Source: a virus
IMG/VR virus record: IMGVR_UViG_3300035698_031273
Span: 1-64,000 of that record
DNA length: 64,000 nucleotides
Reading direction: 5' to 3' (one strand)
Below, one piece after another: positions 7,177 through 38,600 of the stretch (positions are counted from its first letter, which is position 1; each line of letters opens with the position of its first letter). A program made the position numbers and the translations under genes. The notes beneath the pieces were generated by a model that worked only from the letters and a program-made list of their open reading frames with translations, did no database searches and had not been told where the DNA came from.

Positions 7177-7178
7177 AA

Positions 7179-10540: not shown

Positions 10541-10613
10541 ATAATATAGTTTTTAAAGAATAAAATCAATGGATACTAAAATGTATCAGCACCTTAACAA
10601 AGGAGAGTAAAAA

Positions 10614-11008: not shown

Positions 11009-11084
11009 AACTAATATATCTGGTGTCAACTCATAATGAATATTTTTGAATTTATAAATAAATTTAATAGATAAGGAGGTAAAT

Positions 11085-12638: not shown

Positions 12639-12645
12639 ACAAATT

Positions 12646-13112: not shown

Positions 13113-13209
13113 TAAACTTACAAAATTATACAAAAACTTCAATAAATTTATAAAAATAATTTAAATTTTTATTAAAGGAGTTTTAGGATATACCCAGTAA
13201 TTATAATAT

Positions 13210-14379
13210 ATGATTAAGACAGAAAGACATTTTACCACAGGAAACCAAGAAATTATAAATCTTTGTTCTTTAAGTAAAGATTTATATAATCGGTGTCTTT
13301 ATCTAATTAGGCAAGAATATTTTAAACATAAGAGACTACCTGATATAAATATTCTTGTAGATTCAACTAGATGTTTAGATTGTTTTAAAAATCTTCATAA
13401 TACGAAGACTGCCAAACAAACAATCAGAAAAGTATTGTCTGACTGGTCTAATTTTAGGAAAGCATTAAATGCTTTTTACAAAAATCCTAATAAATTTTTA
13501 TCAAAACCCAGACCTCCAAAATACAAAAAGAAATTATCTCAAGTTATATTTTATAGTGAAACTATTAGCAGAAAGGGCTTAAAACATGACATAATTCAAC
13601 CTACAAACAATTGTTTTTCAATTAAATCCAGTATTAAAAAATTTAGACAGGTAGTCATTACTCCAAAAACCTTTGGTTTTGTCATAGATGTACAGTATAA
13701 AGTAGAAGAAAAGAAAAATCCTAGTAGAAAAGGAATTTGTTTTATAGATTTAGGTGTTAATAATTTGGCTTCTATAACTTCAGATCAACTAACTCCCATA
13801 TTGATCAATGGTAGAATAGTTAAAAGTATTAACCAATATTATAACAAATATCCAACTAAAAAGAACTCAAGAAAAAGGTATTTTAGACTAGAAAATTATT
13901 TTCATCACGTAAGTAAATATATTATTGACTTATGTAAAAACAATAATATAGGAAGAATAATTATAGGAAAGAATGATTATTGGAAACAAAAGATAAAAAT
14001 GAAAAAGAAGAACAAACAGAATTTTCAGTATATTCCTTTTTATAAATTGATACAAAAAATTCAGTATAAAGCTAAATTAGAGGGAATTATAGTAGAGTTT
14101 ACTGAAGAAAGTTATACAAGTAAAAGTAGTTTTCTAGACAGAGATCCTTTAGATGGAAGTACTATTTCTGGTAAAAGAGTTCAAAGAGGATTATATAAAA
14201 GTAAAGATGGAAAAATTTTAAATGCAGATGTAAATGGAAGCTTAAACATAGGGAGAAAAGTAATCGGAGAGAAGATTTATGATCTTTTATCTGATAGGAG
14301 CGTTACCGCAACGCCAGTGGTCATTAACCCATTGAAATTATCATCTTCAAAGTTATTTTGTCAAAAGATGGTCGGTTAA
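13210..14379 (+). CDS. tnpB: TnpB-family RNA-guided nuclease (zinc-finger-less subtype)
   Basis: A 389-residue protein. RuvC residues are visible: Asp180 in FIDLGVNNLASI, Glu299/300 in EFTEESYTSKSSFLD, and Asp340 in LNADVNGSLNIGRK, with IIIGKNDYWKQ between them. The usual four-Cys zinc finger between RuvC-II and III is replaced by SSFLDRDPLDG and GKRVQRGLYK, a known variant of IS1341-type TnpB proteins. Length is normal and all three acidic residues are present, so it is probably an active nuclease guided by an RNA from the element's right end. TnpB helps retain and spread such elements. Codon use is as AT-rich as the phage, so it is not an obviously recent arrival. Confidence 0.9.
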   Translation: MIKTERHFTTGNQEIINLCSLSKDLYNRCLYLIRQEYFKHKRLPDINILVDSTRCLDCFKNLHNTKTAKQTIRKVLSDWSNFRKALNAFYKNPNKFLSKPRPPKYKKKLSQVIFYSETISRKGLKHDIIQPTNNCFSIKSSIKKFRQVVITPKTFGFVIDVQYKVEEKKNPSRKGICFIDLGVNNLASITSDQLTPILINGRIVKSINQYYNKYPTKKNSRKRYFRLENYFHHVSKYIIDLCKNNNIGRIIIGKNDYWKQKIKMKKKNKQNFQYIPFYKLIQKIQYKAKLEGIIVEFTEESYTSKSSFLDRDPLDGSTISGKRVQRGLYKSKDGKILNADVNGSLNIGRKVIGEKIYDLLSDRSVTATPVVINPLKLSSSKLFCQKMVG

Positions 14380-14411
14380 TGATACAAACTTGTAAGTTTT
14401 TGTAAATTTAT
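14290..14411 (+). ncRNA. Putative omega-RNA (reRNA) scaffold of the TnpB element
   Basis: By analogy with studied TnpB systems, the guide RNA scaffold covers the 3' end of tnpB and the element's right end, with the guide copied from flanking DNA. Here that is the end of the gene plus a hairpin (AAACT-TGTA-AGTTT, 14386-14399). The guide would begin at about 14412, inside the interrupted phage gene. Boundaries are estimates; no transcription evidence is available. Confidence 0.4.
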
Positions 14412-14702
14412 AAGAACGGTATAGAAAATCGTTATACTCCTGCTGGAATTTTTGTTAGTGAAAATATTGATTTAGCATCTACATATGGGGATATAATAGG
14501 AATAAATGTTGGAGAAATGAAGAATGATAATTATATGCCTGTAGTTTCAATAGAGGAGCCAGTTGAAGAATCTCAAATGAGAGAGGCAATAGCACATAAA
14601 TTGGGGGTGGATAATTTCATAAGTGAATATGAGGCAGGAATTGAAATAGATACGGTTATTTTTTATGGTAAAATTCCACCGAAATATTTAATATTTCAAT
14701 AA
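14412..14702 (+). pseudogene. 3' part of the split W-Y-K-tagged ART-like gene
   Basis: A reading frame open from the element's right end encodes 96 residues. YTPAGIFVSENIDLASTYGDI closely follows the strand-helix pattern seen in the intact YHGT-type protein at 12255 (FIYLSEDIQYAKTY). The frame has no start of its own until ATG 14517, so a 61-residue remnant might be translated. In phase with the 12954 fragment once the element is removed, which supports a single ancestral gene. Confidence 0.72.
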
Positions 14703-14719
14703 TTTTTCACAAAAAATAT

Positions 14720-14747
14720 TTGAAAAGTGAAAAAAATTCGTTAGAAT
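14720..14747 (+). promoter_or_regulatory. Sigma70-type promoter for the outer-membrane protein gene
   Basis: TTGAAA at 14720-14725 and TAGAAT at 14742-14747 are separated by 16 bases, about 45 bases before a strong AAGGAGAG ribosome-binding site and the ATG at 14792. Together with the terminator after the gene this makes a self-contained transcription unit. Confidence 0.6.
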
Positions 14748-14791
14748 AGAAATTGTGTTAGGTTGTTTTTACTTTTTTTAAGGAGAGTTTT

Positions 14792-15673
14792 ATGAGAAAA
14801 CTAATGGCAAGTTTACTAGTATTGTGTTTACTATTTTTTGGAGGAGCGGCTTTTGCTGAAGAAGAGGGGTCTACTGTAGTCCCTGTTGCTCCTAGTGTTA
14901 CAGAGTTAGAACCGTTGATAGATGGTAATTTATTTGGAACAGATTTGAGTGAAGCAACTTGGAAAGAGGCAGATGTAACTATTGAAACTAGTTATGCAAG
15001 TAAATATAAATGGTATGGTAGAAGTCTTTTTGGTTCAACTCCGGTTTGGTCAGCTCGTTCAGTAATTGGTTTACCCAAAGGATTAACTCCATTTGGTGGT
15101 GGTCTTTATGCTGATATTACTGGTTATTTTCCTGCTGGATCAGGTGCTGAGAAAGAGACAGAGATGGATTATTCTTTGTTTTGGCATGCAACTGCAAATG
15201 AGGGCAAGAGAACTCAATTGGAAATTTTTGTAGATTATACCTATTATGATCTTATAAAATCTAATAGGCATTGTGACGGGCAAGAGATTGGAACTACTGT
15301 TTTCATGCCTAATGTAATTGACATTGCAGATGGTGTTATATTGATTGGTCCTAAATATAGAAGTGCTATTTTATGGGATCAAAATCGGGAAGAGATGGAA
15401 CGGTATAATGGGAACGTTCAGGTAGGTGGTCTTGTTTGTCAAATAAATGCAATAGATGGACTTCCTTTAATTGCTAATGCTGATGTTACTTATCTCGATG
15501 TTGGTGATGTAGAGGCTGGTTTTAGTCATAGCACATTTGGCTTAGAGACAAAAATTCAGATTACAAAAGATAGTTATATTAGTCCTTTTGTAAATTATCA
15601 GATGAGAATAGATGATACATTAGAAGATGAAGATGGATTTTGGGGTGGTGTAACCATGGCATATACTTTCTAA
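14792..15673 (+). CDS. Outer-membrane beta-barrel protein with signal peptide
   Basis: A 293-residue protein with a clear Sec signal peptide (basic MRK, hydrophobic core, A-F-A cleavage near residue 22). The mature part has alternating aromatic strands. The first (ETSYASKYKWYGRSLFG, about 69-86) resembles the S-x-Y-x-W-R-G opening strand of small OM barrels of the Gcw_chp type. The last strand ends GVTMAYTF with a terminal Phe, the classical Bam recognition signal. A phage coding for such a protein suggests expression during infection to alter the host surface, for example superinfection exclusion like lambda Lom or receptor masking. It has its own promoter and terminator. Confidence 0.82.
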   Translation: MRKLMASLLVLCLLFFGGAAFAEEEGSTVVPVAPSVTELEPLIDGNLFGTDLSEATWKEADVTIETSYASKYKWYGRSLFGSTPVWSARSVIGLPKGLTPFGGGLYADITGYFPAGSGAEKETEMDYSLFWHATANEGKRTQLEIFVDYTYYDLIKSNRHCDGQEIGTTVFMPNVIDIADGVILIGPKYRSAILWDQNREEMERYNGNVQVGGLVCQINAIDGLPLIANADVTYLDVGDVEAGFSHSTFGLETKIQITKDSYISPFVNYQMRIDDTLEDEDGFWGGVTMAYTF

Positions 15674-15703
15674 GGTATATAAAAACGTAATATTATCCTC
15701 CCA

Positions 15704-15742
15704 AACCCCTGTAAATGATTTATCGTTTACGGGGGTTTTTTT
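15704..15742 (+). terminator. Rho-independent terminator
   Basis: A 12-bp GC-containing stem (AACCCCTGTAAA with TTTACGGGGGTT, one T-G pair) with a 10-base loop is followed by seven T. It ends the outer-membrane protein transcription unit. Confidence 0.9.
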
Positions 15743-15827
15743 AATATTGGAGGATTTAACTACTAATTAACGAACTAAATAAGTGTATAAATATATTAAT
15801 TAAAATAAAGAGAAAAAGGAGAAAAAG

Positions 15828-16034
15828 ATGGCTAAAATTCGTATTCCGTTAGTTTCTGGAGGAAGAGGTAGAGGAATGGGTCCATGTGGTGGAGGACAGG
15901 GGCCAGGTGGAGGAAGAGGACAGGGGACAGGTGGAGGAAGAGGTTTAAATAGAAATACTGGTCCTTGTCAAAATGGTGGGCCTGGACGTGGTTTAGGACA
16001 AGGTCAGGGCAAAGGACTAGGGAGAGTTAAATAA
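15828..16034 (+). CDS. Small Gly/Arg-rich low-complexity protein
   Basis: A 68-residue protein: MAKIRIPLVSGG followed by Gly-rich repeats with Arg, Gln and Pro (GGGRGQG, GPGRGLGQGQGKG) and two isolated Cys (GPCGGGQ, GPCQNGG). It resembles short Gly-rich proteins of the DUF5320 type. Its Gly content contrasts with the AT-rich neighbours. A GGAG ribosome-binding site precedes the ATG. Possibly disordered, RNA-binding or a structural decoration; no function can be assigned. Confidence 0.6.
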   Translation: MAKIRIPLVSGGRGRGMGPCGGGQGPGGGRGQGTGGGRGLNRNTGPCQNGGPGRGLGQGQGKGLGRVK

Positions 16035-16131
16035 TTTAATTTTTAAATAATTTAATAATAATATGTTATTTATCATAATGATGATGTTATTTATAACAGT
16101 TATTTTATGATCTTTTTTATCGGTGATTTAA

Positions 16132-19083
16132 TTGTCAATTACACCTCCTAGAGAAGAGTATATAGCTACTAATGCTACTGTAGCCAAGACTCTAATTATA
16201 AGTGATATTCTTGCTTTACCCCCTCTTCGTCCAAAACAGAGTTTAAATCTTTTACAATTTGCTACTTTGGCTCAAGTAATAGCATCTGTACCACTAAATA
16301 ATTATGTTAAAAATGGACTAATAACAATAACTCCTTATACTCACACTCACGATGACAAGGCAGATGTAGGTCATTTACTTGCTTCTCATGGAGATACTAA
16401 TGTCACGGGGGCACAGCTTAATGTATTAGCTGGAGGAAGAACTTCTGATGCATCTGCCCTCCATATTCATACAGACACAACCACTTATATTAGTAATCAT
16501 ATAAGTAAAACAACTGATGTCCATGGTATTTCTAATACTTCTAATTTAGCATTTAAAAATCTTGATATAAGTCAATTTGATGGACTAAATTTTTCTACTC
16601 AACAATTGGATGTTGCTGTTTCTGCTTCTCATGATAAACTTCACATTATATCAAGTCATACAGATACTGAAGCTACTGGTTCTCAATTGGATAGATTGGT
16701 GGGAGGAGGAAATGTAGATCATTTACATACCCATGATTATTCTGTTGTTAGTCATAATGCTTTGCAAAATATTCAAGGTGGCACCACTGATGAATATTAT
16801 CATTTGACTAGTGATGACTATACAGAACTTTCACAATGGATAGATAGTGTTGTTTTATCTCCAGATGGAAGTCTTAATTTAGTAAATGGACGTTTATATT
16901 TTACCGCAGATAGATGTGCTACTATTTATTTTGACAATAATGAATTAGTATTTGATTTACCTTGTATTTCAATTGATGCTATTTTTGGTTTTTATGAAGA
17001 TGTAAGAATTAACACAGATAAAAGATTATATTTTGGTTCTAATAAAGAAACATTTTTCTATTTTGATGGAGATAATTTACTTTTTGATGTAAACAATCCT
17101 AGTGAAGTAGGCACTTTAATATTTAATATATTTCCTCAAACTCCTCAATCTGCTCCTTCATATGATTATGAAGTAGCTAATAAAAAATATGTAGATGACT
17201 CCACTTCTGGTGTAACAGTTAATCATAATGACACTTTAAATAAACAAGGAGGTCAGGTTGGAGAATACTATCATTTTAATGCAGCAGATTATACAGAATT
17301 AACAAATTGGTTAAACACAGTTACCTTATCTGTAGACGGAAGTCTTAACTTAGCAAATGGGAGTTTGTATTTTACTCCAGACAGATGTGCTTCTATTTAT
17401 TGGCAAAATGATGAATTAGTATTTGATCTACCTTGTGTTACAACAGAATCTCTTTTTAATTTTTATGGAGACATAAAACTAAATACGGATGATAGATTAT
17501 ATTTTGGTTCTAATAAAGAAACATTTTTCTATTATGATGGAGATAACTTAATTTTTGACGTAAGCAATCCTAGTGAATCAGGAACGTTAATATTTGATGT
17601 TTTTCCCCAGACTCCTCAGTCTGATCCTTCTTATGATTATGATGTTGCTAATAAACAATACGTAGATAGTGAAATAGTAGATATTAACCATAATGATACT
17701 TTAAATAAACAAGGTGGAGCAGCTAATGAATATTATCATTTAGATGCAGCAGATTATACTGAATTAACAAATTGGTTGCCTGATGTTATTCTATCCGCTG
17801 GAGGGGATGTAAATTTAAATACTGGGGATTTAACAGCGACAGATGTTACTATTATTAATGATTTAGAAGTATATTTAATGGCATCTCCTACTTATTCATT
17901 AATCAATATAAATACAAATTCTAGTGATACGGCTGTTATCTCAGGTTTCTTTGATAATTCTACTTATGTTGGAGCTACAGAAACAGCTTATCACCGTGCA
18001 ACTTTTAATCAGGTAGAAAACATTGCTACTGCAACTACAATTACTCAGTATTTGAGAGATGATGATATTGGTGTTTCTGGGAATATAGGAACTTTATTAG
18101 GAATTGCTCAGTTAGAATTATATGGTCATAATATAGATATTGATATAGACGTAAATCATATTGTTGCTAGGAATAGCGTTTATATTTGTAAAGGTGTTAA
18201 TATATCTATAGATTCTGGTGGGACAAAGTCAGGCCTGGCTGTCCCATTCTCTTATAGATGGGTTAAAGGAAATGAAGTAACGATAAATTCTTCTACTACT
18301 GTTGGGGTAGATCTCCCGGAATTTAACCATGGTTTTTCTTCTACTCTTTCAGGAAATTTAGGAACAACCTCTACAACAAAAAAAATAGGATATTACACTA
18401 CTATTTCTGGTACTGCTGACGAAAGTCATGGTATTTATATAGATGATGTTACTGGAGCCACAGCTAACTATGCAATAACTATTGATTCTGATACTATTGG
18501 CATATGGTTTGGAGATGATCAGGATTTTTCAATTTATTGTGATGGAACAGACCTTTTATTTGATAATCCAACAACAACAGGGGATTTTAAATTTAGCCGT
18601 TCAATTTATTTAACTGGTAGTTCTGTACTCTATTATAACGATACTAATACAGGTATATGGGAGGATGGGTCAAGTAACCTGACATTTAAGGATACGGTGG
18701 CAGGTACTTTAACTTTGGACGACATGGGTAAACAAAAAATAATTTATATTTCAAAAAAAGTGTTATATGGTGATCCTTCTATTCAAATAGAAAGTATTGA
18801 AGATGGTACTTGGGCAGTTGACGAAGCCATTATTAAATCAGTATCTATTGATACCGATTCAACAGATTGGAGTCTTACAATATATTGTGATACAGATGGG
18901 AGTAGCGGTATCTTTAGCAATATAATACTAGCAAGTCATTTAAGTGGGTCTCAGGCATTGGTATTAGACTTGCCTTATATAGACAATGAATCTTCACAAC
19001 AAATCCACTTGGTTTATGATGATAATACTGGAGATGCTTTAATAGCACATGTTTCTATTACTGGTGTTGCAGCCAGAGTCTAG
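16132..19083 (+). CDS. Large fibre-like virion protein with internal repeats and H-x-H motifs
   Basis: A 983-residue protein from a TTG start. The N-terminal 190 residues carry tail-fibre style His motifs (THTHDDK, LHIHTD, HLHTHDY), which in T4 and P2-type fibres bind metal along the trimer axis. Two full repeats of about 148 residues follow (nt about 16756-17196 and 17227-17671), each with EYYHL/F...DYTEL, DRCA..IY and GSNKETFF, and a third truncated repeat starts near 17692. The C-terminal 400 residues are strand-rich. Probably a trimeric fibre or surface protein, but it lies away from the tail cluster, so a capsid fibre is also possible. Confidence 0.75.
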   Translation: MSITPPREEYIATNATVAKTLIISDILALPPLRPKQSLNLLQFATLAQVIASVPLNNYVKNGLITITPYTHTHDDKADVGHLLASHGDTNVTGAQLNVLAGGRTSDASALHIHTDTTTYISNHISKTTDVHGISNTSNLAFKNLDISQFDGLNFSTQQLDVAVSASHDKLHIISSHTDTEATGSQLDRLVGGGNVDHLHTHDYSVVSHNALQNIQGGTTDEYYHLTSDDYTELSQWIDSVVLSPDGSLNLVNGRLYFTADRCATIYFDNNELVFDLPCISIDAIFGFYEDVRINTDKRLYFGSNKETFFYFDGDNLLFDVNNPSEVGTLIFNIFPQTPQSAPSYDYEVANKKYVDDSTSGVTVNHNDTLNKQGGQVGEYYHFNAADYTELTNWLNTVTLSVDGSLNLANGSLYFTPDRCASIYWQNDELVFDLPCVTTESLFNFYGDIKLNTDDRLYFGSNKETFFYYDGDNLIFDVSNPSESGTLIFDVFPQTPQSDPSYDYDVANKQYVDSEIVDINHNDTLNKQGGAANEYYHLDAADYTELTNWLPDVILSAGGDVNLNTGDLTATDVTIINDLEVYLMASPTYSLININTNSSDTAVISGFFDNSTYVGATETAYHRATFNQVENIATATTITQYLRDDDIGVSGNIGTLLGIAQLELYGHNIDIDIDVNHIVARNSVYICKGVNISIDSGGTKSGLAVPFSYRWVKGNEVTINSSTTVGVDLPEFNHGFSSTLSGNLGTTSTTKKIGYYTTISGTADESHGIYIDDVTGATANYAITIDSDTIGIWFGDDQDFSIYCDGTDLLFDNPTTTGDFKFSRSIYLTGSSVLYYNDTNTGIWEDGSSNLTFKDTVAGTLTLDDMGKQKIIYISKKVLYGDPSIQIESIEDGTWAVDEAIIKSVSIDTDSTDWSLTIYCDTDGSSGIFSNIILASHLSGSQALVLDLPYIDNESSQQIHLVYDDNTGDALIAHVSITGVAARV

Positions 19084-19091
19084 GAGTTTTT

Positions 19092-19340
19092 ATGGCTAAT
19101 TTAACTATAACTGTACCAGATCAATATGTATCAGAATTACTGGAAGCTTTTAAGACAGTTTATCCAAAGATAGACACTAGTGATCCAAACAATATTATTA
19201 CTGTTGATTGTACTGATGTTGAGTGGACGAGATTAAAAATAATTGATTATATTAAAAAAGTATATTCAAAATATAAGAGGCAACAGGCTATCTCAACAGC
19301 TTTATCTGAAGTTTCTATACCGGAAGATTTAGCTGAGTAA
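19092..19340 (+). CDS. Small phage protein, unknown function
   Basis: An 82-residue protein starting MANLTITVPDQYVSELLEAF, eight bases after the fibre-like gene. It alternates a strand, an amphipathic helix, a strand (ITVDCTDVEW) and a basic helix (IDYIKKVYSKYKRQQAI). No catalytic motif. Position suggests co-expression with the fibre-like protein, as a chaperone or minor subunit. Confidence 0.65.
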   Translation: MANLTITVPDQYVSELLEAFKTVYPKIDTSDPNNIITVDCTDVEWTRLKIIDYIKKVYSKYKRQQAISTALSEVSIPEDLAE

Positions 19341-19376
19341 AGGATTTTTAAGGTTATTTTATAATTTAAAGATAAT

Positions 19377-20435
19377 ATGAGTTGGTATAAAAAATCACAA
19401 TTTACAGAGGAAAATACGAGTGGAGTACAAGTTCCTACGATAACTGTCCAACCATATGAGCCTATTGTACAACAAGTAGTAGAAGAAATTAAGGAACAAA
19501 ATCCTTCTTTTTTCGTAGGGATAAATCAAATAGTTGTTGATCCTGGTTATTCCCAATTTGGATCTGTATCTAGTTCTAATCCTGCGGATATAAATATTAA
19601 TTTTAATAAAATAAAAGATGATTTTAGATATCAAATGGGTGTATCTTTCAATCCTTATAATGCTTATCATTTACAATTATTTAAAGATAGTATCAGGCGT
19701 ATCATAGTTCATGAAAAAGCACATGTATCGGACGCTCAACAGGCACAAGAAGGTTCTGAAATTCCTTTATCAGGAGAAGAATTATTTCCTGGAGGAGAAA
19801 GCGTGGCACAACAAGCAGAACAAAAATATTTCAACATGAGTAAGAAAATAGAAAAAAAATCTGTATCAAAGAAAAAATCCACACTAAAGAAAAAAATTAC
19901 ATTGAAGAAAAAACCCACACTTGATTATAAAAATCAAGATGTTCAAAATTTAAGTTTTGGAGACATACAGAGGTATACATTTGACTCATATAATATTAAA
20001 ATAACTTTAAGTAAAACTAAAAAACGTTATGCTGTAGCTTTAGTTGTTACCCATGCATATCTTGGGACTTTCGTTCTGAATATTTTTTGGTCATTTGGTT
20101 TGAACGAACAAGATAAAGCTAACAGTTTATTTAAGAAAGCTACAAAGATAATAAAAGAAGTAGTAAAGTATTTTATTGACAATGAGATGGTAACTTCTAC
20201 ATTCGTATCTTTTTTAAATAATAGATTAACTCCACTAAAGACACGAGAAATGATAAAAACTAATGTGCCTTTTATAAATTATTCTTATGATTTGGAGGTG
20301 GAACAGGATTGGAGAAGTAGTATTTATGGTAATAGGTATCAACAGGTTGTTGAACCAGAAGAAAGTTTTTCACAAGCAAAGGAAAAAAGTCCATATGATC
20401 CCAAGAATTATAATAAAGGAAGGTTTGATATATAA
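19377..20435 (+). CDS. W-Y-K-tagged HExxH metallopeptidase-like protein
   Basis: A 352-residue protein starting MSWYKKSQF, the tagged gene outside the main cassette. Residues 112-116 are HEKAH on a helix (IRRIIVHEKAHVSDA), a zincin HExxH motif; Glu/Gly-rich sequence (about 125-142) may supply a third ligand. A Lys-rich linker (about 150-182, KKIEKKSVSKKK and similar) joins it to a second domain (about 185-330) with strand-helix character, beginning NLSFGDIQRYTF, that I cannot name. No ribosome-binding site is obvious. The domain resembles phage zincins rather than secreted proteases because there is no signal peptide. Confidence 0.7.
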   Translation: MSWYKKSQFTEENTSGVQVPTITVQPYEPIVQQVVEEIKEQNPSFFVGINQIVVDPGYSQFGSVSSSNPADININFNKIKDDFRYQMGVSFNPYNAYHLQLFKDSIRRIIVHEKAHVSDAQQAQEGSEIPLSGEELFPGGESVAQQAEQKYFNMSKKIEKKSVSKKKSTLKKKITLKKKPTLDYKNQDVQNLSFGDIQRYTFDSYNIKITLSKTKKRYAVALVVTHAYLGTFVLNIFWSFGLNEQDKANSLFKKATKIIKEVVKYFIDNEMVTSTFVSFLNNRLTPLKTREMIKTNVPFINYSYDLEVEQDWRSSIYGNRYQQVVEPEESFSQAKEKSPYDPKNYNKGRFDI

Positions 20436-27787: not shown

Positions 27788-28825
27788 ATGAGTAAAGCTA
27801 TAGCTTCCGATATCGGAACAATGTTTTTCCAAGTAGCAGAATTAAATGAAAATAAAAAAACTATAATAAAAACAATAAGAAATTCTTTTGTAGAACTAGA
27901 AGACTCTGAAGATGTAGAACAAGTTCTTCAACAAAACAAGTGGAAATATGTCAAAGACGAAGATAAATACTATGTTATTGGAGAAGATAGTCTCGTTGTA
28001 GCCAAAATGTTTCCTGGAAGAGTTGAATTAAGAAGACCTATGCAAGACGGTGTTCTTAATAAAGGGGAACAGAAAAAGATGTTGGTAATGGCAGAAATAA
28101 TTGAAAAAGCTATAGGGCAGGCTCCTGATGATAATTCTTTAGTTTGTATATGTGTATCGAGTCCCTCTGCTGATGGTTCTGCTGATAGTACTTTTCATCG
28201 TGCTCGTTTAGAAGGAATGTTTTCCAGATTGGGATGGAATGTAAAAGTAATAGATGAAGCATTGGCGGTTATATTGGCAGAAAAACCAGTTATTGTTGAA
28301 GAAGATGGAACAGAGTCTCCATTTAGTGGGATCGGAATAAGTCTAGGAGCGGGTCGGGCCAACTGTGTTTTAGCTTATAAAGGATTGCAAATTATAGGGT
28401 TCTCAGTTGCTAGATGTGGAGATTTTATTGATAAAAAAGTGGCTGATCAAACGGATACTCCTATTTCTCAAGTTATTTCTAGAAAAGAGAAAAAATTAGA
28501 TTTTGACAATATAGATTATGATGATGATATTTTATTTGCTTTAGATGCTTATTATGGAAGTGTAATAGAACATGTCTTTAAAATATTTTCTAATAAATTT
28601 AGTGAAGTAAAAAGTCAATTCGAAACACCATTAGATATTGTAATTGCTGGTGGTACCAGTATGCCTAATGGGTTTGAGAAAAAAGTTGAAAAAGTTATAA
28701 ATAAATTAAACCTTCCTTTTAAGATAAAAGAAGTGAGAAAATCTAAAGATCCAAGAAATGCAGTTGTTAAAGGACTTTTGACTCAAGCTATTATTAGCCA
28801 AAAAAGATTGGAAAAGAAAAAATAG
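27788..28825 (+). CDS. Actin-like ATPase (ParM/MreB superfamily)
   Basis: A 345-residue protein with the actin/Hsp70 ATPase pattern: phosphate-1 loop SDIGTMFFQVAE (about 7-18), phosphate-2 region GIGISLGAGRANCVLAYKG (about 179-197) and the adenosine loop IVIAGGTSMPNGFEKKV (about 287-303). Length and spacing match bacterial and phage actin-like filaments such as ParM/AlfA types. It could form a filament for genome or virion positioning, or be a non-polymerising relative. The upstream gene could be an adaptor. A strong terminator follows, so it ends its transcription unit. Confidence 0.82.
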   Translation: MSKAIASDIGTMFFQVAELNENKKTIIKTIRNSFVELEDSEDVEQVLQQNKWKYVKDEDKYYVIGEDSLVVAKMFPGRVELRRPMQDGVLNKGEQKKMLVMAEIIEKAIGQAPDDNSLVCICVSSPSADGSADSTFHRARLEGMFSRLGWNVKVIDEALAVILAEKPVIVEEDGTESPFSGIGISLGAGRANCVLAYKGLQIIGFSVARCGDFIDKKVADQTDTPISQVISRKEKKLDFDNIDYDDDILFALDAYYGSVIEHVFKIFSNKFSEVKSQFETPLDIVIAGGTSMPNGFEKKVEKVINKLNLPFKIKEVRKSKDPRNAVVKGLLTQAIISQKRLEKKK

Positions 28826-28909: not shown

Positions 28910-29629
28910 ATGGGATATTCTTCTATTACTGATGTTCAGAATGTAATGGCACAGGCATTAACAAGTGCTACCACTGCTACTCTCTCGGGGACATCTAATC
29001 TTTTAAATGTCGGGAGAGTTTTAGACACAAATTTAGTAACAACTTCATTGATAGATAGTTATATTACATATGCAGATAATGAAATAGATAGTTATATTAG
29101 TAGTATATATAAAACTCCTCTTTGTGAATTGGCAGATTTTGAATCAGAAGTATATTCTGCTATTAGTGATTATAATTCATATCTTGTTATAGAAAGGGCT
29201 TGTCCTCTTTCTGTAGGAGATACAGTTATTTTAATTGAAGGGGAGTATGAAGAAAGGCATGTTATTGATGAGGTTATTGGAGATGGGGTTTATAGCACTA
29301 CAGATCCTATTCAATATGAATTTTCTACAGATGCCCGTTTAATAAGGGTGAAATTTCCAGATCCTATTACTTTAATATCTGCTCGAATAGCTGCTGCTAA
29401 TATTTTTGACAAGTATTTTGCTTCTCAAAACTCTCCAAATATTTCTGAATATGGAAAACATATAAGAGAATTGGCTAGGTCTGATATTAATAATATTTTA
29501 AACGGAAGAGCAACATTGCATGGTCAACTTAGAATTGGAAGAAGATTTTTTAATGCAAATTTGACTGATCAATATGATTTGCCCAGAGGAACTGAAAGTT
29601 CTAAAGATATTAGTGAATTAAGTAAGTAA
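28910..29629 (+). CDS. Head-tail connector protein, DUF1320/gp36-like
   Basis: A 239-residue protein. The core pattern is that of Mu gp36-type head-tail joining proteins: an N-terminal ITDVQNVMAQAL, then LIDSYITYADNEIDSYISSIYKTPL (positions about 46-72) and a later helix LISARIAAANIFDKYF. An insertion of about 45 residues (about 90-135) is strand-rich and unusual. It is the first gene after the terminator and opens the tail-morphogenesis block. Confidence 0.72.
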   Translation: MGYSSITDVQNVMAQALTSATTATLSGTSNLLNVGRVLDTNLVTTSLIDSYITYADNEIDSYISSIYKTPLCELADFESEVYSAISDYNSYLVIERACPLSVGDTVILIEGEYEERHVIDEVIGDGVYSTTDPIQYEFSTDARLIRVKFPDPITLISARIAAANIFDKYFASQNSPNISEYGKHIRELARSDINNILNGRATLHGQLRIGRRFFNANLTDQYDLPRGTESSKDISELSK

Positions 29630-29632
29630 CAT

Positions 29633-29944
29633 ATGGCTGATAATGAAAAATTTGTAAACGACATGGAACATACTTCTAATGAAATGAGGAAGATATCCAG
29701 TAGTGGTAATGTTGATTTTGTTTTAGGCTCTGATTTTGTTGACAATAAATTAAAAAATAAAAAGGTTAATACTAAACTTAGTAAGACAGATAAAGATGCT
29801 AGGGATGAAGCTAGATTTAGGAAAACGTTGTTTAAAGAACCTTTTGATGAATCTGGTACTCCTCCAGAAGAGATGGATGATGCAGAATTTTCTATTATAA
29901 ATAAATATATGGAACGATTTTTAGACAACTTATTTAATATTTGA
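29633..29944 (+). CDS. Small acidic phage protein, unknown function
   Basis: A 103-residue highly charged protein between the connector and the next structural gene. NVDFVLGSDFVDNKLKNKK is followed by helices rich in Lys, Arg and Asp, and a C-terminal helix (EFSIINKYMERFLDNLFNI). Such proteins in tail operons are often minor head-completion or assembly factors; nothing here proves it. Confidence 0.7.
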   Translation: MADNEKFVNDMEHTSNEMRKISSSGNVDFVLGSDFVDNKLKNKKVNTKLSKTDKDARDEARFRKTLFKEPFDESGTPPEEMDDAEFSIINKYMERFLDNLFNI

Positions 29945-31457: not shown

Positions 31458-32483
31458 ATGGCTTTTGGCATACCTGCTGCTGCTATGGGATTTGTTGGGT
31501 TTGCGAGATTTAACATTCCCAATAATACTACCGTTGTAAGAGCAACAAGTGCTGATCTTAAGTTGAGTCAAGAAATTACGAAGCCCGATGTGATTGATAG
31601 TCGATTTGATCGTACTTTGTATCAATTGGGTCCAAAAATTGTAGAAGGATCTATTGAGTTTCCGGCTATCTTTGACAGTGGTACAACTCAGAATATTAGT
31701 GATGTAGCAAAGGCTTTGTACGAAAGAACGGTATATAGAGATACTTATGGAAAATTACAGTATATGGATGTTGAGGTGAAGTATAGTTATGAAAATGCTT
31801 CTTTTCTGTATCCTAATTGCATTATAAATAGTTGGAATTTTTCAGTTGATCAGCAAGATGTTATTAAAATAACTGTAAATGTAATAGGTGGAGTTAATGC
31901 CAACGAAGCGAGAATAAGTAAGGTTTTTGCGGAACCAACCGAAGCAAATATGGCTCTTACTCGTATTTGTACCTGGAACGATGCTGTTTTTAGAGTATTT
32001 AACTCTGATTTTGATCTAGATATTGGAGGTGAATGGATTAGGCATTTTGATGTAGAAATTAATAATGATGCTGAGCGTTTTTATACTCTTAATGGACTTC
32101 TTCTTCCTCAAGATGTTTCTCCTAAGAAAAGAGAAGTTACTGGTTCTATGATTATTATGGGTCGTCATCCTAATTTATCTAGTCAGGCTCTTACTAATCA
32201 AGAGCGTTGTACTGAAAGTACATGGGTTAAATTTGGATATCAGATATCAAATAGTCAGTGTGGAGCAGGTTTTTATTCTTGTTTACCAAATTCAGTTTTT
32301 CAAATTGAAGAAATAGCATTAACAAACGATCTTTTTGAAACAACAGTAAATTTCCATAATTTTCCTGTGGCTCGACAAAGATTAAGTACAGAGTCTTATG
32401 ATTTTAATCAGACTACTGGCTCAACAACTGATCCTGATCCTATGCTAAGATATATAAATGAGGATCCAGATTCATTTACATAA
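31458..32483 (+). CDS. Putative tail tube protein
   Basis: A 341-residue strand-rich protein starting MAFGIPAAAMGFVGFARFN. Features typical of long-tail tube proteins are a strand VVRATSADLKLSQEIT, a segment VEGSIEFPAIFD, and INSWNFSVDQQDVIKITVNVIGG (about 117-140), the last resembling the 'S-x-x-V-x-x-x-xxixxxxxg' tube motif. A second copy of such strands follows at 180-330. Good GGAG ribosome-binding site, a strong terminator after the gene, and position before the chaperone and tape measure all agree. Abundant expression is expected. Confidence 0.72.
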   Translation: MAFGIPAAAMGFVGFARFNIPNNTTVVRATSADLKLSQEITKPDVIDSRFDRTLYQLGPKIVEGSIEFPAIFDSGTTQNISDVAKALYERTVYRDTYGKLQYMDVEVKYSYENASFLYPNCIINSWNFSVDQQDVIKITVNVIGGVNANEARISKVFAEPTEANMALTRICTWNDAVFRVFNSDFDLDIGGEWIRHFDVEINNDAERFYTLNGLLLPQDVSPKKREVTGSMIIMGRHPNLSSQALTNQERCTESTWVKFGYQISNSQCGAGFYSCLPNSVFQIEEIALTNDLFETTVNFHNFPVARQRLSTESYDFNQTTGSTTDPDPMLRYINEDPDSFT

Positions 32484-33325: not shown

Positions 33326-33444
33326 ATGATTTATTAATATTTTTGTTTATAAGGGAATTTTATTTAACATTGGAAGAAATAAAAAAAATACCAAGTAATA
33401 TGGTGAGAGAAATGATTTTGTTATTAAGAAAGGAAAATTTATGA
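33322..33444 (+). CDS. Small second T-domain-like protein
   Basis: A 40-residue protein (MNDLLIFLFIREFYLTLEEI...). Its REFYLTLEEIKKIPSNMV aligns with KEFHWTLKEIDETPYEKI of the preceding T domain, showing that it is a duplicated, shortened copy. ATGA overlaps at both ends couple it to its neighbours. Confidence 0.7.
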   Translation: MNDLLIFLFIREFYLTLEEIKKIPSNMVREMILLLRKENL

Positions 33445-33863
33445 TTAGTGTATTGGTAAAAGAAAACGAAGAAATAACAGTAAAGATTGTTATTGGTGCT
33501 AATAAAGATGGAAATATTTATTGTGAGCCATTTAGAGACAAAGAAGAACTAGTGAAGTTTCTTGGTGAGGACATTAAAGGAGAAATAGAAGAACATATGG
33601 TTATTTTTAGGAGACCAAGTTCTAAAGACATGAAGGAAATATCTGCTGATGTATTTAGTTTTGGAGGAGAAGGTGATATAGGTTTTAATCCTTTGGCTGC
33701 TCGGTTTGCTAAAATGAAAAAACTTATAAAATCATGGTCTTTTTTTGATGAACAGGGAAATAAAATTGCTGCTACTGCTGATAATATCTCTTCTTTAAAT
33801 CCTGCTATTGGCAATGTTTTAGGAGCAGAATTAGATTCAGCAACAGGTGGATTAATTAGATAG
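33441..33863 (+). CDS. Second tail assembly chaperone-like protein
   Basis: A 140-residue protein. Its C-terminal half (MKKLIKSWSFFDEQGNKIAATADNISSLNPAIGNVLGAEL) parallels the first chaperone's KACLKKWNLTDDEQNPIPVTPENIDFLPADI region, with W, D-E-Q and the N-I-x-x-L pattern in the same order. The N-terminal part differs. The order chaperone-T-T-chaperone suggests a local duplication. It ends convergently with the minus-strand membrane gene, leaving only one base between stops. Confidence 0.72.
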   Translation: MISVLVKENEEITVKIVIGANKDGNIYCEPFRDKEELVKFLGEDIKGEIEEHMVIFRRPSSKDMKEISADVFSFGGEGDIGFNPLAARFAKMKKLIKSWSFFDEQGNKIAATADNISSLNPAIGNVLGAELDSATGGLIR

Positions 33864-33864
33864 T

Positions 33865-34263
33865 TCACCTGCCTGTTATTTTTCCAAGAAAGCCAGATAT
33901 GACAGTTCCCGCATAGAAGATAAGTAGAAGTATTAAATATCCTACCAATTGTATTTCTTTGGCGGAACAAGGCCACTCCCATATCCATACACAAATAACT
34001 GTTAATATCCATATGAGAAATGTGGGAATCCATGATCGTGTTACAAATATTAATAGAAAACTAAAAACAATAACTAAACAGAGACGGTCAAAGTGAAAAT
34101 CTTCTATTTCTTCATCTTCTTGTAGTGTCCATCCTTGTTTGATATCATGTCCGAGTTCCACCATCTCAGGATCATTTTTGCATTCTCCATAAGCCCACCA
34201 CATGACAACAATGAACAGAACTACTGCTCCTATTTTTGTAATTATTCCTAGTTTTGTTTCCAT
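33865..34263 (-). CDS. Multi-pass membrane protein, copy A of a duplicated pair
   Basis: A 132-residue protein starting METKLGIITKIG. Four hydrophobic segments (about 8-24, 60-76, 80-95, 104-124) are separated by an acidic loop (WTLQEDEEIEDFHFDRL). It is paralogous to the next minus-strand gene, sharing METKL, the acidic loop (W-T-x-Q-E-D-E) and a WPxxxKEI segment. AGAGG precedes the ATG. Transcribed against the tail operon, it is an accessory gene; function unknown, possibly an inner-membrane exclusion protein. Confidence 0.78.
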   Translation of the reverse strand: METKLGIITKIGAVVLFIVVMWWAYGECKNDPEMVELGHDIKQGWTLQEDEEIEDFHFDRLCLVIVFSFLLIFVTRSWIPTFLIWILTVICVWIWEWPCSAKEIQLVGYLILLLIFYAGTVISGFLGKITGR

Positions 34264-34320
34264 TTTTACCTCTGGTTTTATTGCCTTTTATTTCATTTCT
34301 CTATTTTAATAGGTTTTCTT

Positions 34321-34338
34321 ATATAATGCTGGAAAATT
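34321..34338. repeat. 18-bp repeat, copy 1
   Basis: ATATAATGCTGGAAAATT, perfect match to three other copies. It lies 58 bases upstream of the start of the minus-strand gene at 34263. Confidence 0.9.
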
Positions 34339-34343
34339 TTAAA

Positions 34344-34730
34344 TTATTTATTAAAAATGCCTTTTATAGCAGCTCCAAATACAAGAACAAGTCCTATTGC
34401 AAGAAATGCAGCAATTTCTAATTCTTTAAAAGTTAAAGGCCATTTCCATATTGCTACAGAAAGAATAATTAATGCCCATAAAGAAACTACAAAGCCAGGA
34501 GATATAAACAATAAAATAAAACTAATTCCCATTAACAAGAATAAACGTCCTAGATGAACATCTTCTGTTGTTTCATCTTCTTGTTGAGTCCATTCTTCTG
34601 TAGCAATATTTGCAATAGGAGCCAAGTCAGGCCACACTGCTTTATATCCCCACCATATGGCAATTATGAATAAAATTGGCACTCCTATTATAAGACAGTA
34701 GTTTTTGATTACTTCTAATTTAGTTTCCAT
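34344..34730 (-). CDS. Multi-pass membrane protein, copy B of a duplicated pair
   Basis: A 128-residue protein starting METKLEVIKNYC. Four hydrophobic segments and an acidic loop (WTQQEDETTEDVHLGRL) match its paralogue at 33865, with WPLTFKELE near the end. A sigma70 promoter (TTGATA-17-TAAAAT on this strand) lies 27-55 bases upstream. One copy of the 18-bp repeat lies about 60 bases upstream of the start in both paralogues, so gene and control region were duplicated together. Confidence 0.78.
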   Translation of the reverse strand: METKLEVIKNYCLIIGVPILFIIAIWWGYKAVWPDLAPIANIATEEWTQQEDETTEDVHLGRLFLLMGISFILLFISPGFVVSLWALIILSVAIWKWPLTFKELEIAAFLAIGLVLVFGAAIKGIFNK

Positions 34731-34756
34731 TTTTTTACCCTTTATTTAGGTTTTTT

Positions 34757-34785
34757 ATTTTAGCATCTTTCTCTACATATATCAA
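34757..34785 (-). promoter_or_regulatory. Sigma70 promoter for the minus-strand membrane genes
   Basis: On the minus strand TTGATA (34785-34780) and TAAAAT (34762-34757) are separated by exactly 17 bases, upstream of ATG 34730. The nearest 18-bp repeat copy ends eight bases upstream of the -35 element, a position suited to an activator or operator. Confidence 0.65.
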
Positions 34786-34792
34786 TTGAATC

Positions 34793-34810
34793 ATATAATG
34801 CTGGAAAATT
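34793..34810. repeat. 18-bp repeat, copy 2
   Basis: Perfect copy, 63 bases upstream of the start of the minus-strand gene at 34730, just beyond its -35 element. Confidence 0.9.
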
Positions 34811-34872
34811 ATAGAATTTTGCCCAAAAATAATGAAAAAACTGCATTTTTACTCAAAAATAAGGCATTTTTC

Positions 34873-34890
34873 ATATAATGCTGGAAAATT
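34873..34890. repeat. 18-bp repeat, copy 3
   Basis: Perfect copy, 80 bases from copy 2. The spacing sequence contains partly repeated A/T-rich words (ACTCAAAAATAAGG and ACTCAAAAAGAGGG). Confidence 0.9.
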
Positions 34891-34922
34891 TCACATTTTA
34901 ACATAAATAAATGGGGTTTTTT

Positions 34923-34940
34923 ATATAATGCTGGAAAATT
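34923..34940. repeat. 18-bp repeat, copy 4
   Basis: Perfect copy, 50 bases from copy 3 and about 95 bases before the tape measure ATG. The 302-base gap 34731-35033 contains no gene, only these repeats, the minus-strand promoter and A/T-rich sequence. Confidence 0.9.
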
Positions 34941-35033
34941 CCTAATTTTACTCAAAAAGAGGGATTTTTCAGAAAAAATTAAAATAAAAGGGTAGGAAAT
35001 TTCTTTAAAAAATTCTTTGAGGATTAATTTATT

Positions 35034-38000
35034 ATGCCAGAAGATGTAAGTAAAAATATAAATTATAATATAGAAGCTAATCTTAAATCTGTAGGTTTTG
35101 GTAAGGCTACTGGTGATGTTAACAAAGTTTTAGAGGAGATGAAAAAACTAAATATCGTTAATAAAGCAGCACAAAAAATTTATGGAGATACAGGAAAATC
35201 TATTGTTAAGATGGCCAGAGACAATGTAAGAAGTTCTAAAAATACTTCTAAGGCTACGAAGGAATTAACCGAACATACAAAAGGCTATAGGAGAGAAATA
35301 AATGTCTTAACAAGATCAGTAAAAAATGCTATTGGCTCTATTACTAAAATAGGGGTTGCATTAGTAACAGCTGGTGAAATAAATATTAGAGGTTTCAAGA
35401 CTTTACAGGAATTAAACAAGTCATATATTAAAGTATCTGGCTCTGCTTTAAAATATGGAATTGGCTTGGGTGAAGTTGAGGCCATGTCGAAGCGAGCTAT
35501 TAATACAATGGGATTAACTCGTAAAGAAGCACTTGAATTGTTTGATGTTTTTCAGAAAGGATTTGTTGGAGTAAGTACTATAGGAGTTAAGGGTTTTGAA
35601 AAGATATCTTCAAATATTAGAAATGTTGTAGGTCCAGATTTACAAGCCATTACAGCAGCATTCGGAGAAATAAATGCAATAACTCAAAGATTGCCTAGTA
35701 CACTTTCTTTGTTTGAAAATGTTAAAGACCCAGCCATTAATAAAAATTTGAGAGAATCTATTACTTTATGGCAATTAAGTGGAACCATGACTAGAGAATC
35801 AGCAAATATGATGCGTGATTATATTACACAGGGTCAGCAATTAACGGAATTTGAAAAAGCAGAACGAGAAGAACTGAAAAAAAGTCAAGCGGTGTTTCAA
35901 AAGTTTAAGGAAATTGCTATAATCGTTGGATCAGGAGTAGCCAAGGCATTAATGCCTATCTTTGAGGAAATATCTTCTTGGATGAAAAAGTTTAGAGAAG
36001 GACCTACTTTAGGAGACATGTTTGAGAAGTTTAAAGAAAAAGTAGAAGAGACAGTGCCTCATTTAAAGAAATTTGCTCAGGCTATTGCTTACTTAGGGTT
36101 AGTTGCATGGTTAGCAAAAGTTGCTGTTGGAGCAATGCTGGTAGCAAAGGCTATTGCTGCAATTGGATTTACACCGCTTCTTATAGGTATTACCGCTGCT
36201 GTTGCGGGCTTTTTTGCACTTAAAGCAGCATGGGATCATTTTTTCGGCAGCAAAGGTATGGATAAAATGTTAGAAGGGCAAAAAAAACAAGCTGAGCAAA
36301 CCAAAAAACAAAAAGAGATTGAAGAAGAGAGGCAAAAAGAAGCATTAAAAGCTGCTCAAGCTATAGGACAAGCAGAGTCAGATAGAGCCGCTGCTATTGT
36401 AGCAAGAACTCAGCTTAGTCAGAAATCAATAGATGCTCAAAAAAGTGAGTTGTCTAGTCTGGTGAAATATATGCAGATGACTAATAGAATTTCTACCGAA
36501 GAACTTATGATAAAACGAGATAAAATATTAAAAGAAATTACATATCAGATAGGTCGTCAAGAAATAATTATACAAAATGCTAAAAAAATTCTAGCTAGTG
36601 AAACAGCTACTGCTGATCAAAAAAAAGAGGCAGGAACATCAGAATCTAATGCAATTGCAAAAATAAATACATTAAGGGTAGAAGAGTTAACCACAGCAGA
36701 AAGCATTATGCCAGTTTACCAAACAAGATTAGATATTGTTAGTAAAGAAGCTAATTTGATGGGATCAATGGTACAATTGGTAGACAATTATGCTATTGGT
36801 GTTGGAGCTTCAGCAAAAATGAGAATGCAAGCAGTTTCTGCCTTAGACAAACAAATGAAAGTTCTTAAAGACGAAATGAAAATAGCTGAAGATTTGTATG
36901 AAAAGAATGGGGATTTATATGCCCTTCAGAGTAGAATGCTTGATTTACAGAACCAACAATTGCAAGTCCAGATGAAACAAGCTTCAATGGTAAAAACTTT
37001 ACGTGATGGATGGATCGAAGCTATTGGAGCTATGAATACTGGAGCCGGAAGATATTCTAAGATAATTATGGATGCCAATCAAAATACTGCTCAATTAATA
37101 AAATTTGGGGGTATTATTTCTTCTCGTTCTGGTTCTTATGATCCTGAAGCTGGCTATAGAACTGCTGCTAGATATTCTGCTAATCAACAGGGAGGTTTTA
37201 CTGCTCCTCAATATGGAGTTGGAGGTCAAGGAGGTTTTGCTTATCGTACTCCTACTACTCCACTTGAAGCACTTATGTTGGAGCAAACAAAACGTATGGA
37301 AGCCGCTGGTCTTGCTGCTTCTTATGGTGAAGCCATTTCTGCAGGAAAAGGTAATCAAGAAGGACAGGCTCTTTCTCAACATCCTTATAAAGAAGCTTAT
37401 ATGAATTCTGGTGGAGGTCAAATGGGTGGTGGAGCATCGAAAAAAGTAGAGGACAGCAGAAAAATATATAATGATAGAATGGCGGCTAATTTAGGAATAC
37501 CGACATCTAAAAAAACAAAATCTGAAGATGAAATAGAGGGTAGTAAAACAGATATAGAAAAAATTGTAGCAGAATTAGTTAAAATATCAACTGATAAAGT
37601 AGAAATTAATGGAAAAAATATAAGTTTTTCACCAACAGGAGGAGTTTCACCAACGGGAACAGTTTCACAAGTTCCGCCTCCTACTCCTACTGAATTAGAA
37701 GCAGCATCTCAAATAACAGGAACATTACCAGTAACAAAAGCTAAGCCTATCGGACCAGAGATGACAGGTGAAGTTGAATATAGTAGTTCTGGTGCAATTA
37801 GTAGTGCTGGTATTCCTCGGGGTTTGACGGTAGGAGGTGTGGAATATAGCCAAAAACAAGCAGAACAATATAGACAGATAAAGGCACATAAACTTTCTCC
37901 TGAAATAGAGGAAAAAATACGTACTACTGAAGGAGAACCACGTTTACAGGAAATTAAAGAGAAACTTGCTGCCGAACGAGATGTGTGGTTTACACAACTT

Positions 38001-38600
38001 GAGAATCTTGTATCTTCAGGAAATGCAGGAGGACGAACAGAACAAGAGGTTCAGGTAGAAATGAAAAGGCTAAAAAATAGCGGTTGGGGTGGGTTATATA
38101 ATACTTTATTGACCGACGACGCACTGAGAAATAAAGCTAGTAAAAGATTAGAACAAAGAACTCAAAAAGAGGAATCTATGTCTCCTTCAATGAGAACAAG
38201 AGAAGCAGGACAGTTTGATCCGGATATAAATAGAAGCGTTATGGCTGCTGATGCCGCTATTGCCTCAGATGAAGAAGATAAATATAACAAAGATATTGCA
38301 CGGGAACAAAAATATCTTAAATCACAAGATGTTGTGCAGCAGATGAGACAAGCAGCAAATGTAAGAGTAGATGAACATCGGCAACAATGGGAAGGACAAA
38401 ATTCATCTTTTACTCCTTTTGATACAAATAATAATGTTGTTCATGTTAAATCAGATCCGGTTTCTGTTAATTTGAAATTAACCGATCTTTTTAAATTTCT
38501 TAAAACTTTTGACAATCGTGTTGCATCTACTATTGAGAGTGCGTCTACTGTGGCGGTAGAAAATCATATTGCTAAAAATGCTGATGGTTTAGTTTCATAA
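35034..38600 (+). CDS. Tail tape measure protein
   Basis: A 1188-residue protein. The N-terminal 330 residues are helical with coiled-coil character. A hydrophobic stretch follows (about 345-400: AYLGLVAWLAKVAVGAMLVAK and IGITAAVAGFFAL, two membrane-like helices), then long charged helices (about 410-650), a Gly/Tyr/Gln-rich region (about 690-810) and a disordered Pro/Thr section. This layout and the position after the tail chaperones are diagnostic. If the usual rule of about 0.15 nm per residue holds, the tail would be roughly 180 nm long. No lysozyme or peptidase domain is recognised. Confidence 0.9.
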   Translation: MPEDVSKNINYNIEANLKSVGFGKATGDVNKVLEEMKKLNIVNKAAQKIYGDTGKSIVKMARDNVRSSKNTSKATKELTEHTKGYRREINVLTRSVKNAIGSITKIGVALVTAGEINIRGFKTLQELNKSYIKVSGSALKYGIGLGEVEAMSKRAINTMGLTRKEALELFDVFQKGFVGVSTIGVKGFEKISSNIRNVVGPDLQAITAAFGEINAITQRLPSTLSLFENVKDPAINKNLRESITLWQLSGTMTRESANMMRDYITQGQQLTEFEKAEREELKKSQAVFQKFKEIAIIVGSGVAKALMPIFEEISSWMKKFREGPTLGDMFEKFKEKVEETVPHLKKFAQAIAYLGLVAWLAKVAVGAMLVAKAIAAIGFTPLLIGITAAVAGFFALKAAWDHFFGSKGMDKMLEGQKKQAEQTKKQKEIEEERQKEALKAAQAIGQAESDRAAAIVARTQLSQKSIDAQKSELSSLVKYMQMTNRISTEELMIKRDKILKEITYQIGRQEIIIQNAKKILASETATADQKKEAGTSESNAIAKINTLRVEELTTAESIMPVYQTRLDIVSKEANLMGSMVQLVDNYAIGVGASAKMRMQAVSALDKQMKVLKDEMKIAEDLYEKNGDLYALQSRMLDLQNQQLQVQMKQASMVKTLRDGWIEAIGAMNTGAGRYSKIIMDANQNTAQLIKFGGIISSRSGSYDPEAGYRTAARYSANQQGGFTAPQYGVGGQGGFAYRTPTTPLEALMLEQTKRMEAAGLAASYGEAISAGKGNQEGQALSQHPYKEAYMNSGGGQMGGGASKKVEDSRKIYNDRMAANLGIPTSKKTKSEDEIEGSKTDIEKIVAELVKISTDKVEINGKNISFSPTGGVSPTGTVSQVPPPTPTELEAASQITGTLPVTKAKPIGPEMTGEVEYSSSGAISSAGIPRGLTVGGVEYSQKQAEQYRQIKAHKLSPEIEEKIRTTEGEPRLQEIKEKLAAERDVWFTQLENLVSSGNAGGRTEQEVQVEMKRLKNSGWGGLYNTLLTDDALRNKASKRLEQRTQKEESMSPSMRTREAGQFDPDINRSVMAADAAIASDEEDKYNKDIAREQKYLKSQDVVQQMRQAANVRVDEHRQQWEGQNSSFTPFDTNNNVVHVKSDPVSVNLKLTDLFKFLKTFDNRVASTIESASTVAVENHIAKNADGLVS

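What the first reader, a model, noticed from the sequence alone, without database searches (positions are those of the whole stretch)
33865..34940. Duplicated antisense membrane genes, each preceded by an 18-bp repeat
Seen: two paralogous four-helix proteins in a row on the minus strand, and four perfect copies of ATATAATGCTGGAAAATT. Copies 1 and 2 lie 58 and 63 bases upstream of the two starts, so control and gene were duplicated together; copies 3 and 4 extend the array. A sigma70 promoter (TTGATA-17-TAAAAT) sits next to copy 2. Inference: an operator or activator site for membrane genes expressed against the tail operon, perhaps a moron for exclusion. No other copy was noticed in the window.
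Basis: partly seen in the sequence, partly recalled or inferred. Interest (0 to 1): 0.65.

Follow-up and report, generated by a model that had tools for sequence, protein, structure and literature searches.

The report
Membrane-gene pair inserted before tape measure
A large uncultured phage carries two related small membrane-protein genes, backwards and with their own set of four identical 18-letter DNA sites, in a gap of its tail operon where related phages carry either nothing or unrelated membrane-protein genes; they are probably accessory genes that act on DNA injection (for example, shutting out rival phages), but this is inferred, not shown.

Summary
Two paralogous 3-4-helix genes (35% identical, minus strand) and exactly four perfect 18-mers lie at 33865-34940. 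No other 18-mer copy (<=2 mismatches) occurs in the 107-kb record; eight exact hits elsewhere in IMG/VR all fall inside long ORFs. The 18-mer is the invariant core of a decayed ~50-bp tandem unit: flanks 48-52% identical, core 100%. This points to a selected protein-binding site.

Comparison adds the main result. The tail gene order is conserved in relatives (records up to 0.55 Mb). The whole 1.17-kb module sits between the conserved gene at 33441 and the tape measure gene (TMP). That junction is empty in nine readable relatives. In five records (four distinct) it holds a + strand membrane gene: three families, none related to the window pair. No other small + ORF nearby has even two helices (0 of 192). 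One such gene (L124) has its own private three-copy repeat array upstream. Where membrane genes are unrelated, TMPs are largely unalignable although tail tubes are 81-89% identical. HK97 gp15, a known superinfection-exclusion moron, occupies the same slot.

Best reading: a separately controlled moron paired with TMP function, probably exclusion. Mechanism inferred. The proteins have no recognisable family.

The parts
33865..34263 (-). P0001, 132-aa membrane protein (4 predicted helices, acidic loop 1)
   Evidence: AF2 helices 2-30, 56-74, 78-94, 101-129 but pLDDT 53
34344..34730 (-). P0002, 128-aa paralogue of P0001 (3-4 predicted helices)
34321..34338 (.). 18-mer copy 1, in the leader of P0001
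34793..34810 (.). 18-mer copy 2, upstream of P0002, next to the -35-like box
34873..34890 (.). 18-mer copy 3, in the tandem array
34923..34940 (.). 18-mer copy 4, in the tandem array
34844..34971 (.). tandem array, period 50, 2.6 copies, containing 18-mer copies 3 and 4
34931..34972 (+). hairpin formed in + strand RNA from copy 4 and its downstream arm (-15.9 kcal/mol, z -4.6; much weaker on the minus strand)
34757..34785 (-). sigma-70-like promoter TTGATA-17-(TGC)TAAAAT for P0002
   Evidence: weak: fewer matches in region than in shuffles
33844..33871 (+). terminator-like hairpin at the end of the gene at 33441, between convergent genes
   Evidence: z -3.1; the stricter scan did not report it
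33441..33863 (+). conserved upstream neighbour, probably tail-assembly (chaperone-like by position)
   Evidence: no family hit
35034..38600 (+). probable tape measure protein (TMP), conserved downstream neighbour
   Evidence: position, length, synteny with relatives; no named family hit
31458..32483 (+). tail tube protein used to find the relatives
   Evidence: (PF18906)

Best explanation
The stretch 33864-35033 is a moron-like insertion in the late tail region. It consists of two duplicated inner-membrane-protein genes read against the tail operon, under a private operator (the 18-mer) that was duplicated with the gene and multiplied into a small array. A regulator encoded elsewhere (phage or host) binds the 18-mers and sets expression of the pair independently of the tail genes. 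The proteins sit in the host inner membrane and interact with the tape-measure-dependent DNA injection step, most likely blocking injection by related phages (superinfection exclusion in the manner of HK97 gp15). Shown by comparison: the insertion, the recurrent slot, predicted membrane character, private conserved repeat. Inferred: regulation through protein binding, link to TMP, exclusion.
For: Insertion: gene order g29952-g30976-tube-g32679-g33134-g33441-TMP is largely conserved and TMP follows g33441 directly in L113, L114 and L115 and in L116, L117, L119, L120, L123 and L132. Slot: L124, L126=L127, L128 and L129 carry one + strand gene there with 3 strict helices; 0 of 192 other + ORFs of 70-400 aa within 10 kb have >=2 (Fisher 8e-8, or 3e-6 counting homologous genes once). 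Three families, none related to P0001/P0002. Co-turnover: L126/L128/L129 have tubes 81-89% identical but membrane genes about 23%; homologous membrane genes (L126/L128, E 4e-17) go with full-length-alignable TMPs (39% over 902 aa), unrelated ones with TMPs alignable only in pieces. The tube tree needs two changes of the label, also across the bootstrap range, which favours a separate gain in the window lineage but does not prove it. A second private array: three 20-bp repeats upstream of the L124 gene, found nowhere else in that 164-kb record. 18-mer core 100% against flanks 48-52% while the genes are 35% identical. HK97 gp15 lies between tail chaperone and TMP with a terminator, the layout of L126, L128 and L129 (terminator after the membrane gene); HK97 gp15 is a predicted inner-membrane exclusion protein, and hybrids with HK022 tail tube and TMP escape it (PMC10883804).
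Against: No sequence similarity of P0001/P0002 to any known exclusion protein or any family; models too poor for a fold search. No regulator identified. Window orientation differs from the relatives and from gp15. 18-mer spacing to the best -10-like boxes is not constant. No transcript data. Co-turnover rests on three close phages, and TMPs evolve fast anyway. Exclusion is established mainly for prophage genes; nothing shows that this phage is temperate.
Confidence: 0.45

Rival explanations
1. The pair is a holin/antiholin-like lysis set: small multi-helix proteins, paralogous, one antagonising the other, with non-homologous holins in the same slot of relatives.
For: Size and helices fit holins; paralogous pairs and non-homologous replacement are typical of holins (own knowledge).
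Against: No lysis enzyme beside them in the window, as far as scanned with Pfam; opposite strand to the late genes in the window; the relatives' genes of 189-207 aa carry long soluble C-terminal tails; a single gene, not a pair, in relatives.
Confidence: 0.15
2. The membrane proteins are partners of TMP in the virion or in assembly/injection (not exclusion): they help pore formation or tail assembly and are exchanged together with TMP.
For: Slot directly beside TMP; co-turnover with TMP in L126/L128/L129.
Against: Absent from the slot in nine readable relatives with the same tail genes; minus-strand orientation and private repeats in the window suggest separate timing.
Confidence: 0.2
3. The 18-mers act on the + strand: as TATAAT-containing promoters or RNA hairpins of the TMP operon, not as operators of the minus genes.
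For: Each copy contains a perfect TATAAT on the + strand; copies 2-4 lie in the divergent region before TMP; copy 4 forms a strong hairpin in + strand RNA, much weaker on the minus strand.
Against: Copy 1 precedes no conserved + gene; the scan lists a -35/-10 pair on the + strand only at copy 2; only copy 4 folds well; relatives start TMP without such a repeat.
Confidence: 0.15
4. The array is an iteron-type replication origin or a partition site (for instance for the volactin-like gene at 27788).
For: Direct 18-bp repeats in AT-rich DNA; an actin-like gene 6 kb away.
Against: Irregular spacing 472/80/50; one copy in a gene leader; no initiator or adaptor gene recognised beside it; no GC-skew change at the site; not found in relatives.
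Confidence: 0.05

Closest known systems
HK97 gp15 (superinfection-exclusion moron)
   Same: Small predicted inner-membrane protein encoded between the tail chaperone and TMP genes of a long-tailed phage, with a terminator at the junction; exclusion function and link to tail tube/TMP reported (PMC10883804).
   Different: No sequence similarity found (gp15 hits phrog_5031; P0001/P0002 hit nothing); gp15 is 62 aa, single, on the + strand; here two paralogues of about 130 aa, reversed, with a private repeat array, in a large uncultured phage.
HK97 gp23 'reverse moron'
   Same: A moron on the strand opposite to the tail operon (annotation).
   Different: Other position (between the I and J homologues); homology to the window pair not tested.
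TP-J34 Ltp and Tuc2009 Sie2009
   Same: Membrane-anchored exclusion proteins that block DNA injection; Ltp exclusion is overcome by TMP changes (PMC10883804).
   Different: Gram-positive hosts; Ltp is a lipoprotein; no direct sequence comparison made here.

Membership tests
Phage moron | Extra gene(s) between two genes that are adjacent in related phages | tested here: met
   Junction empty in L113/L121, L114/L118, L115/L125, L116, L117, L119, L120, L123 and L132
Phage moron | Own promoter and terminator | tested here: inconclusive
   One 10/12 sigma-70-like match and one terminator-like hairpin; promoter matches not above shuffles; hairpin not reported by the stricter scan
Phage moron | Deviating base composition | tested here: inconclusive
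   GC3 0.178 for P0002 (mean of other genes 0.176, sd 0.029) but 0.263 for P0001
Phage moron | Dispensable for growth, expressed independently of the late operon | not testable with these tools
   needs RNA and deletion data
HK97 gp15-type superinfection exclusion | Sequence homology to gp15 | tested here: not met
   gp15 hits phrog_5031; P0001/P0002 hit no PHROG at E<=0.1
HK97 gp15-type superinfection exclusion | Membrane protein encoded beside TMP | tested here: met
   (membrane character is a prediction)
HK97 gp15-type superinfection exclusion | Blocks DNA injection of related phages | not testable with these tools
   needs infection assays
Holin | Encoded with an endolysin, late expressed | tested here: inconclusive
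   No lysis domain among the window genes scanned with Pfam; the record is probably a fragment and not every gene was scanned
Iteron origin | Regularly spaced iterons with a skew change at the site | tested here: not met
   Irregular spacing 472/80/50; cumulative skew smooth
Iteron origin | Initiator gene beside the repeats | tested here: inconclusive
   Neighbouring genes have no initiator match, but several have no family match at all

The most novel reading that the evidence does not exclude
In this lineage of large phages the junction before the tape measure gene is a turnover site for unrelated membrane proteins that match the resident tape measure type, some of them switched by private, locally evolved repeat operators: an exclusion or injection-specificity locus that changes together with TMP.
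Probability: 0.3. Interest if true: 0.7.

Novelty: new variant of a known kind. Interest (0 to 1): 0.45.

Why it matters
How large phages defend an infected cell against relatives is poorly known. If the slot before TMP holds exclusion genes, synteny alone would point to candidates that no sequence search finds, and close phages (L126, L128, L129) that differ in membrane gene and TMP give a direct test of specificity. Private repeat arrays before two unrelated genes of the slot would be an example of local, repeatedly evolved control of accessory genes.

Tried and rejected
Homologues of P0001/P0002: none in IMG/VR, genome contigs, phages, plasmids, PDB sequences, Pfam/PHROG/NCBIfam/PADLOC, or 34 records reached through the relatives (one weak partial hit at E 0.003 with a stop inside, disregarded). 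Direct searches for relatives with TMP, tube and DnaB failed; the helicase alignment A3 worked. AF2 models of both proteins have pLDDT 53-54, so no fold search was run. The 18-mer elsewhere in IMG/VR lies inside long ORFs in three distinct contexts: chance. In 12 relatives, near-matches are at control level. No Rfam match. An antisense 'membrane' ORF at 29569-29928 was rejected: a + ORF of 103 aa (29633-29944) fills that gap. Host assignment through TnpB failed. An archaeal host, suggested by volactin, was rejected because of a bacterial-type IF3 gene.

Full report
What was checked. The window is the first 64 kb of a 107,069-b IMG/VR virus record. The 18-mer ATATAATGCTGGAAAATT occurs exactly four times (34321, 34793, 34873, 34923), always in one orientation, with no further copy at <=2 mismatches in the record. 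Eight exact hits in IMG/VR lie inside long ORFs in three distinct contexts and are chance. TRF finds a 50-bp tandem array at 34844-34971, so copies 3 and 4 are units of a decayed array. Flanks of 20 nt are 48-52% identical between copies (chance 33%) while the core is 18/18 in all four. Since the two genes have drifted to 35% identity, an unchanged core means selection or recent gene conversion; selection is likelier because the flanks are not homogenised.

The genes. P0001 and P0002 are read on the minus strand; the minus frame gives by far the best similarity between the two regions (235 against <=131), both start METKL, both have Shine-Dalgarno-like leaders. Predicted topology: helix, acidic loop, three more hydrophobic helices (the strict script counts 4 and 3). 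No family, no homologue anywhere searched. Behind both 18-mers (copies 1 and 2) a TAGAGAAA follows at the same 17-nt distance (p about 0.011), which supports duplication of control element and gene together. A gapped alignment of the whole leaders is not significant (382 of 2000 shuffles as good).

Relatives. An alignment of the UvsW-like helicase found related IMG/VR contigs; three had a tail tube 40-48% identical, and a tube alignment found 17 loci, some in records of 350-548 kb. The window is therefore probably a fragment of a larger phage. Gene order around the tube is largely conserved. In L113, L114 and L115 (the same contigs as L121, L118 and L125), and in L116, L117, L119, L120, L123 and L132, TMP follows the g33441 homologue with a short gap. 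The window's 1.17 kb is thus an insertion. L122 also shows only a 104-nt gap there, but its small genes were not matched by similarity, so it is not counted among the nine.

The slot. L124, L126 (=L127), L128 and L129 carry one + strand gene at this junction, with 3 strict helices; L130 carries a soluble one. Of 192 other + strand ORFs of 70-400 aa in the relatives' loci none has two helices (Fisher 8e-8, or 3e-6 if homologous genes are counted once; many of the 192 may be spurious ORFs, so this is indicative). L126 and L128 are homologous (E 4e-17); L124, L129 and the window pair show no similarity to them or to each other. The tube tree puts L124-L129 in one clade and the window among phages with an empty slot, which favours at least two gains; one origin is not ruled out by starred branches alone. 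Within L126/L128/L129 tubes are 81-89% identical and the gene after TMP 61-63%, but g33441 32-45%, membrane genes about 23% and TMP 29-40%; TMPs align over full length only where the membrane genes are homologous. L124 has three 20-bp repeats upstream of its gene, private in its 164-kb record, a second case of a local array before an unrelated membrane gene. L126, L128 and L129 have none. L126, L128 and L129 have an intrinsic terminator between membrane gene and TMP; L114 and L119 have one in the otherwise empty junction.

Known parallel. In HK97, gp15 (annotated moron) lies between the frameshifted tail chaperone and TMP, followed by a terminator. Literature describes it as a predicted inner-membrane exclusion protein that blocks DNA injection, escaped by hybrids with HK022 tail tube and TMP (PMC10883804). 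The original HK97 paper was not held. The window pair sits in the same place and has the same general character but is not detectably homologous, so it is filed as 'works like', not as a member.

Mechanism and its limits. I favour a separately controlled accessory pair acting at the membrane on TMP-dependent injection, most likely exclusion (0.45). The weakest links are regulation by the 18-mers (no regulator known; a sigma-70 match that is not above chance; a + strand hairpin at copy 4, z -4.6, that this model does not explain) and the exclusion function itself. Holin, virion partner and + strand promoter remain open.

Noticed in passing
window 1817-20435 (genes starting at 1817, 2062, 4473, 4925, 6685, 7167, 7648, 8504, 9313, 9734, 11315, 12246, 12646, 19377): At least a dozen otherwise different proteins share an N-terminal motif like M[NST]WYK, repeated at DNA level (ATGAATTGGTATAAA). 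It looks like a shared targeting tag (packaging or localisation).
   Followed up: no
record G000 94765-95259 (L016:12765-13259): A complete translation initiation factor IF-3 gene (PF05198 and PF00707); points to a bacterial host.
   Followed up: partly
window 27788-28825: Volactin-type actin homologue (PF25216, E 1e-60), a family described in haloarchaea; the only phage-collection hits are two uncultured huge phages.
   Followed up: partly
window 34931-34972: Copy 4 and its downstream arm form a 13-bp hairpin in + strand RNA with G-U pairs (z -4.6), much weaker on the minus strand; unexplained.
   Followed up: partly
L124:12375-12475 and L124:12843-12894: Two different direct-repeat families flank the membrane gene before TMP; the first is private in its record, the second was not searched.
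   Followed up: partly
record G000 95268-98357: AAA ATPase gene split by an intein, with an HNH-like ORF inside (by reading; intein domain).
   Followed up: no
window 14792-15673: Protein with a signal peptide and beta-barrel-like sequence by eye, possibly an outer-membrane protein; no Pfam hit.
   Followed up: no
window 13210-14379 and record G000 104570-105715: Two TnpB-like genes in one phage record: the first by Pfam, the second by reading its sequence only.
   Followed up: no
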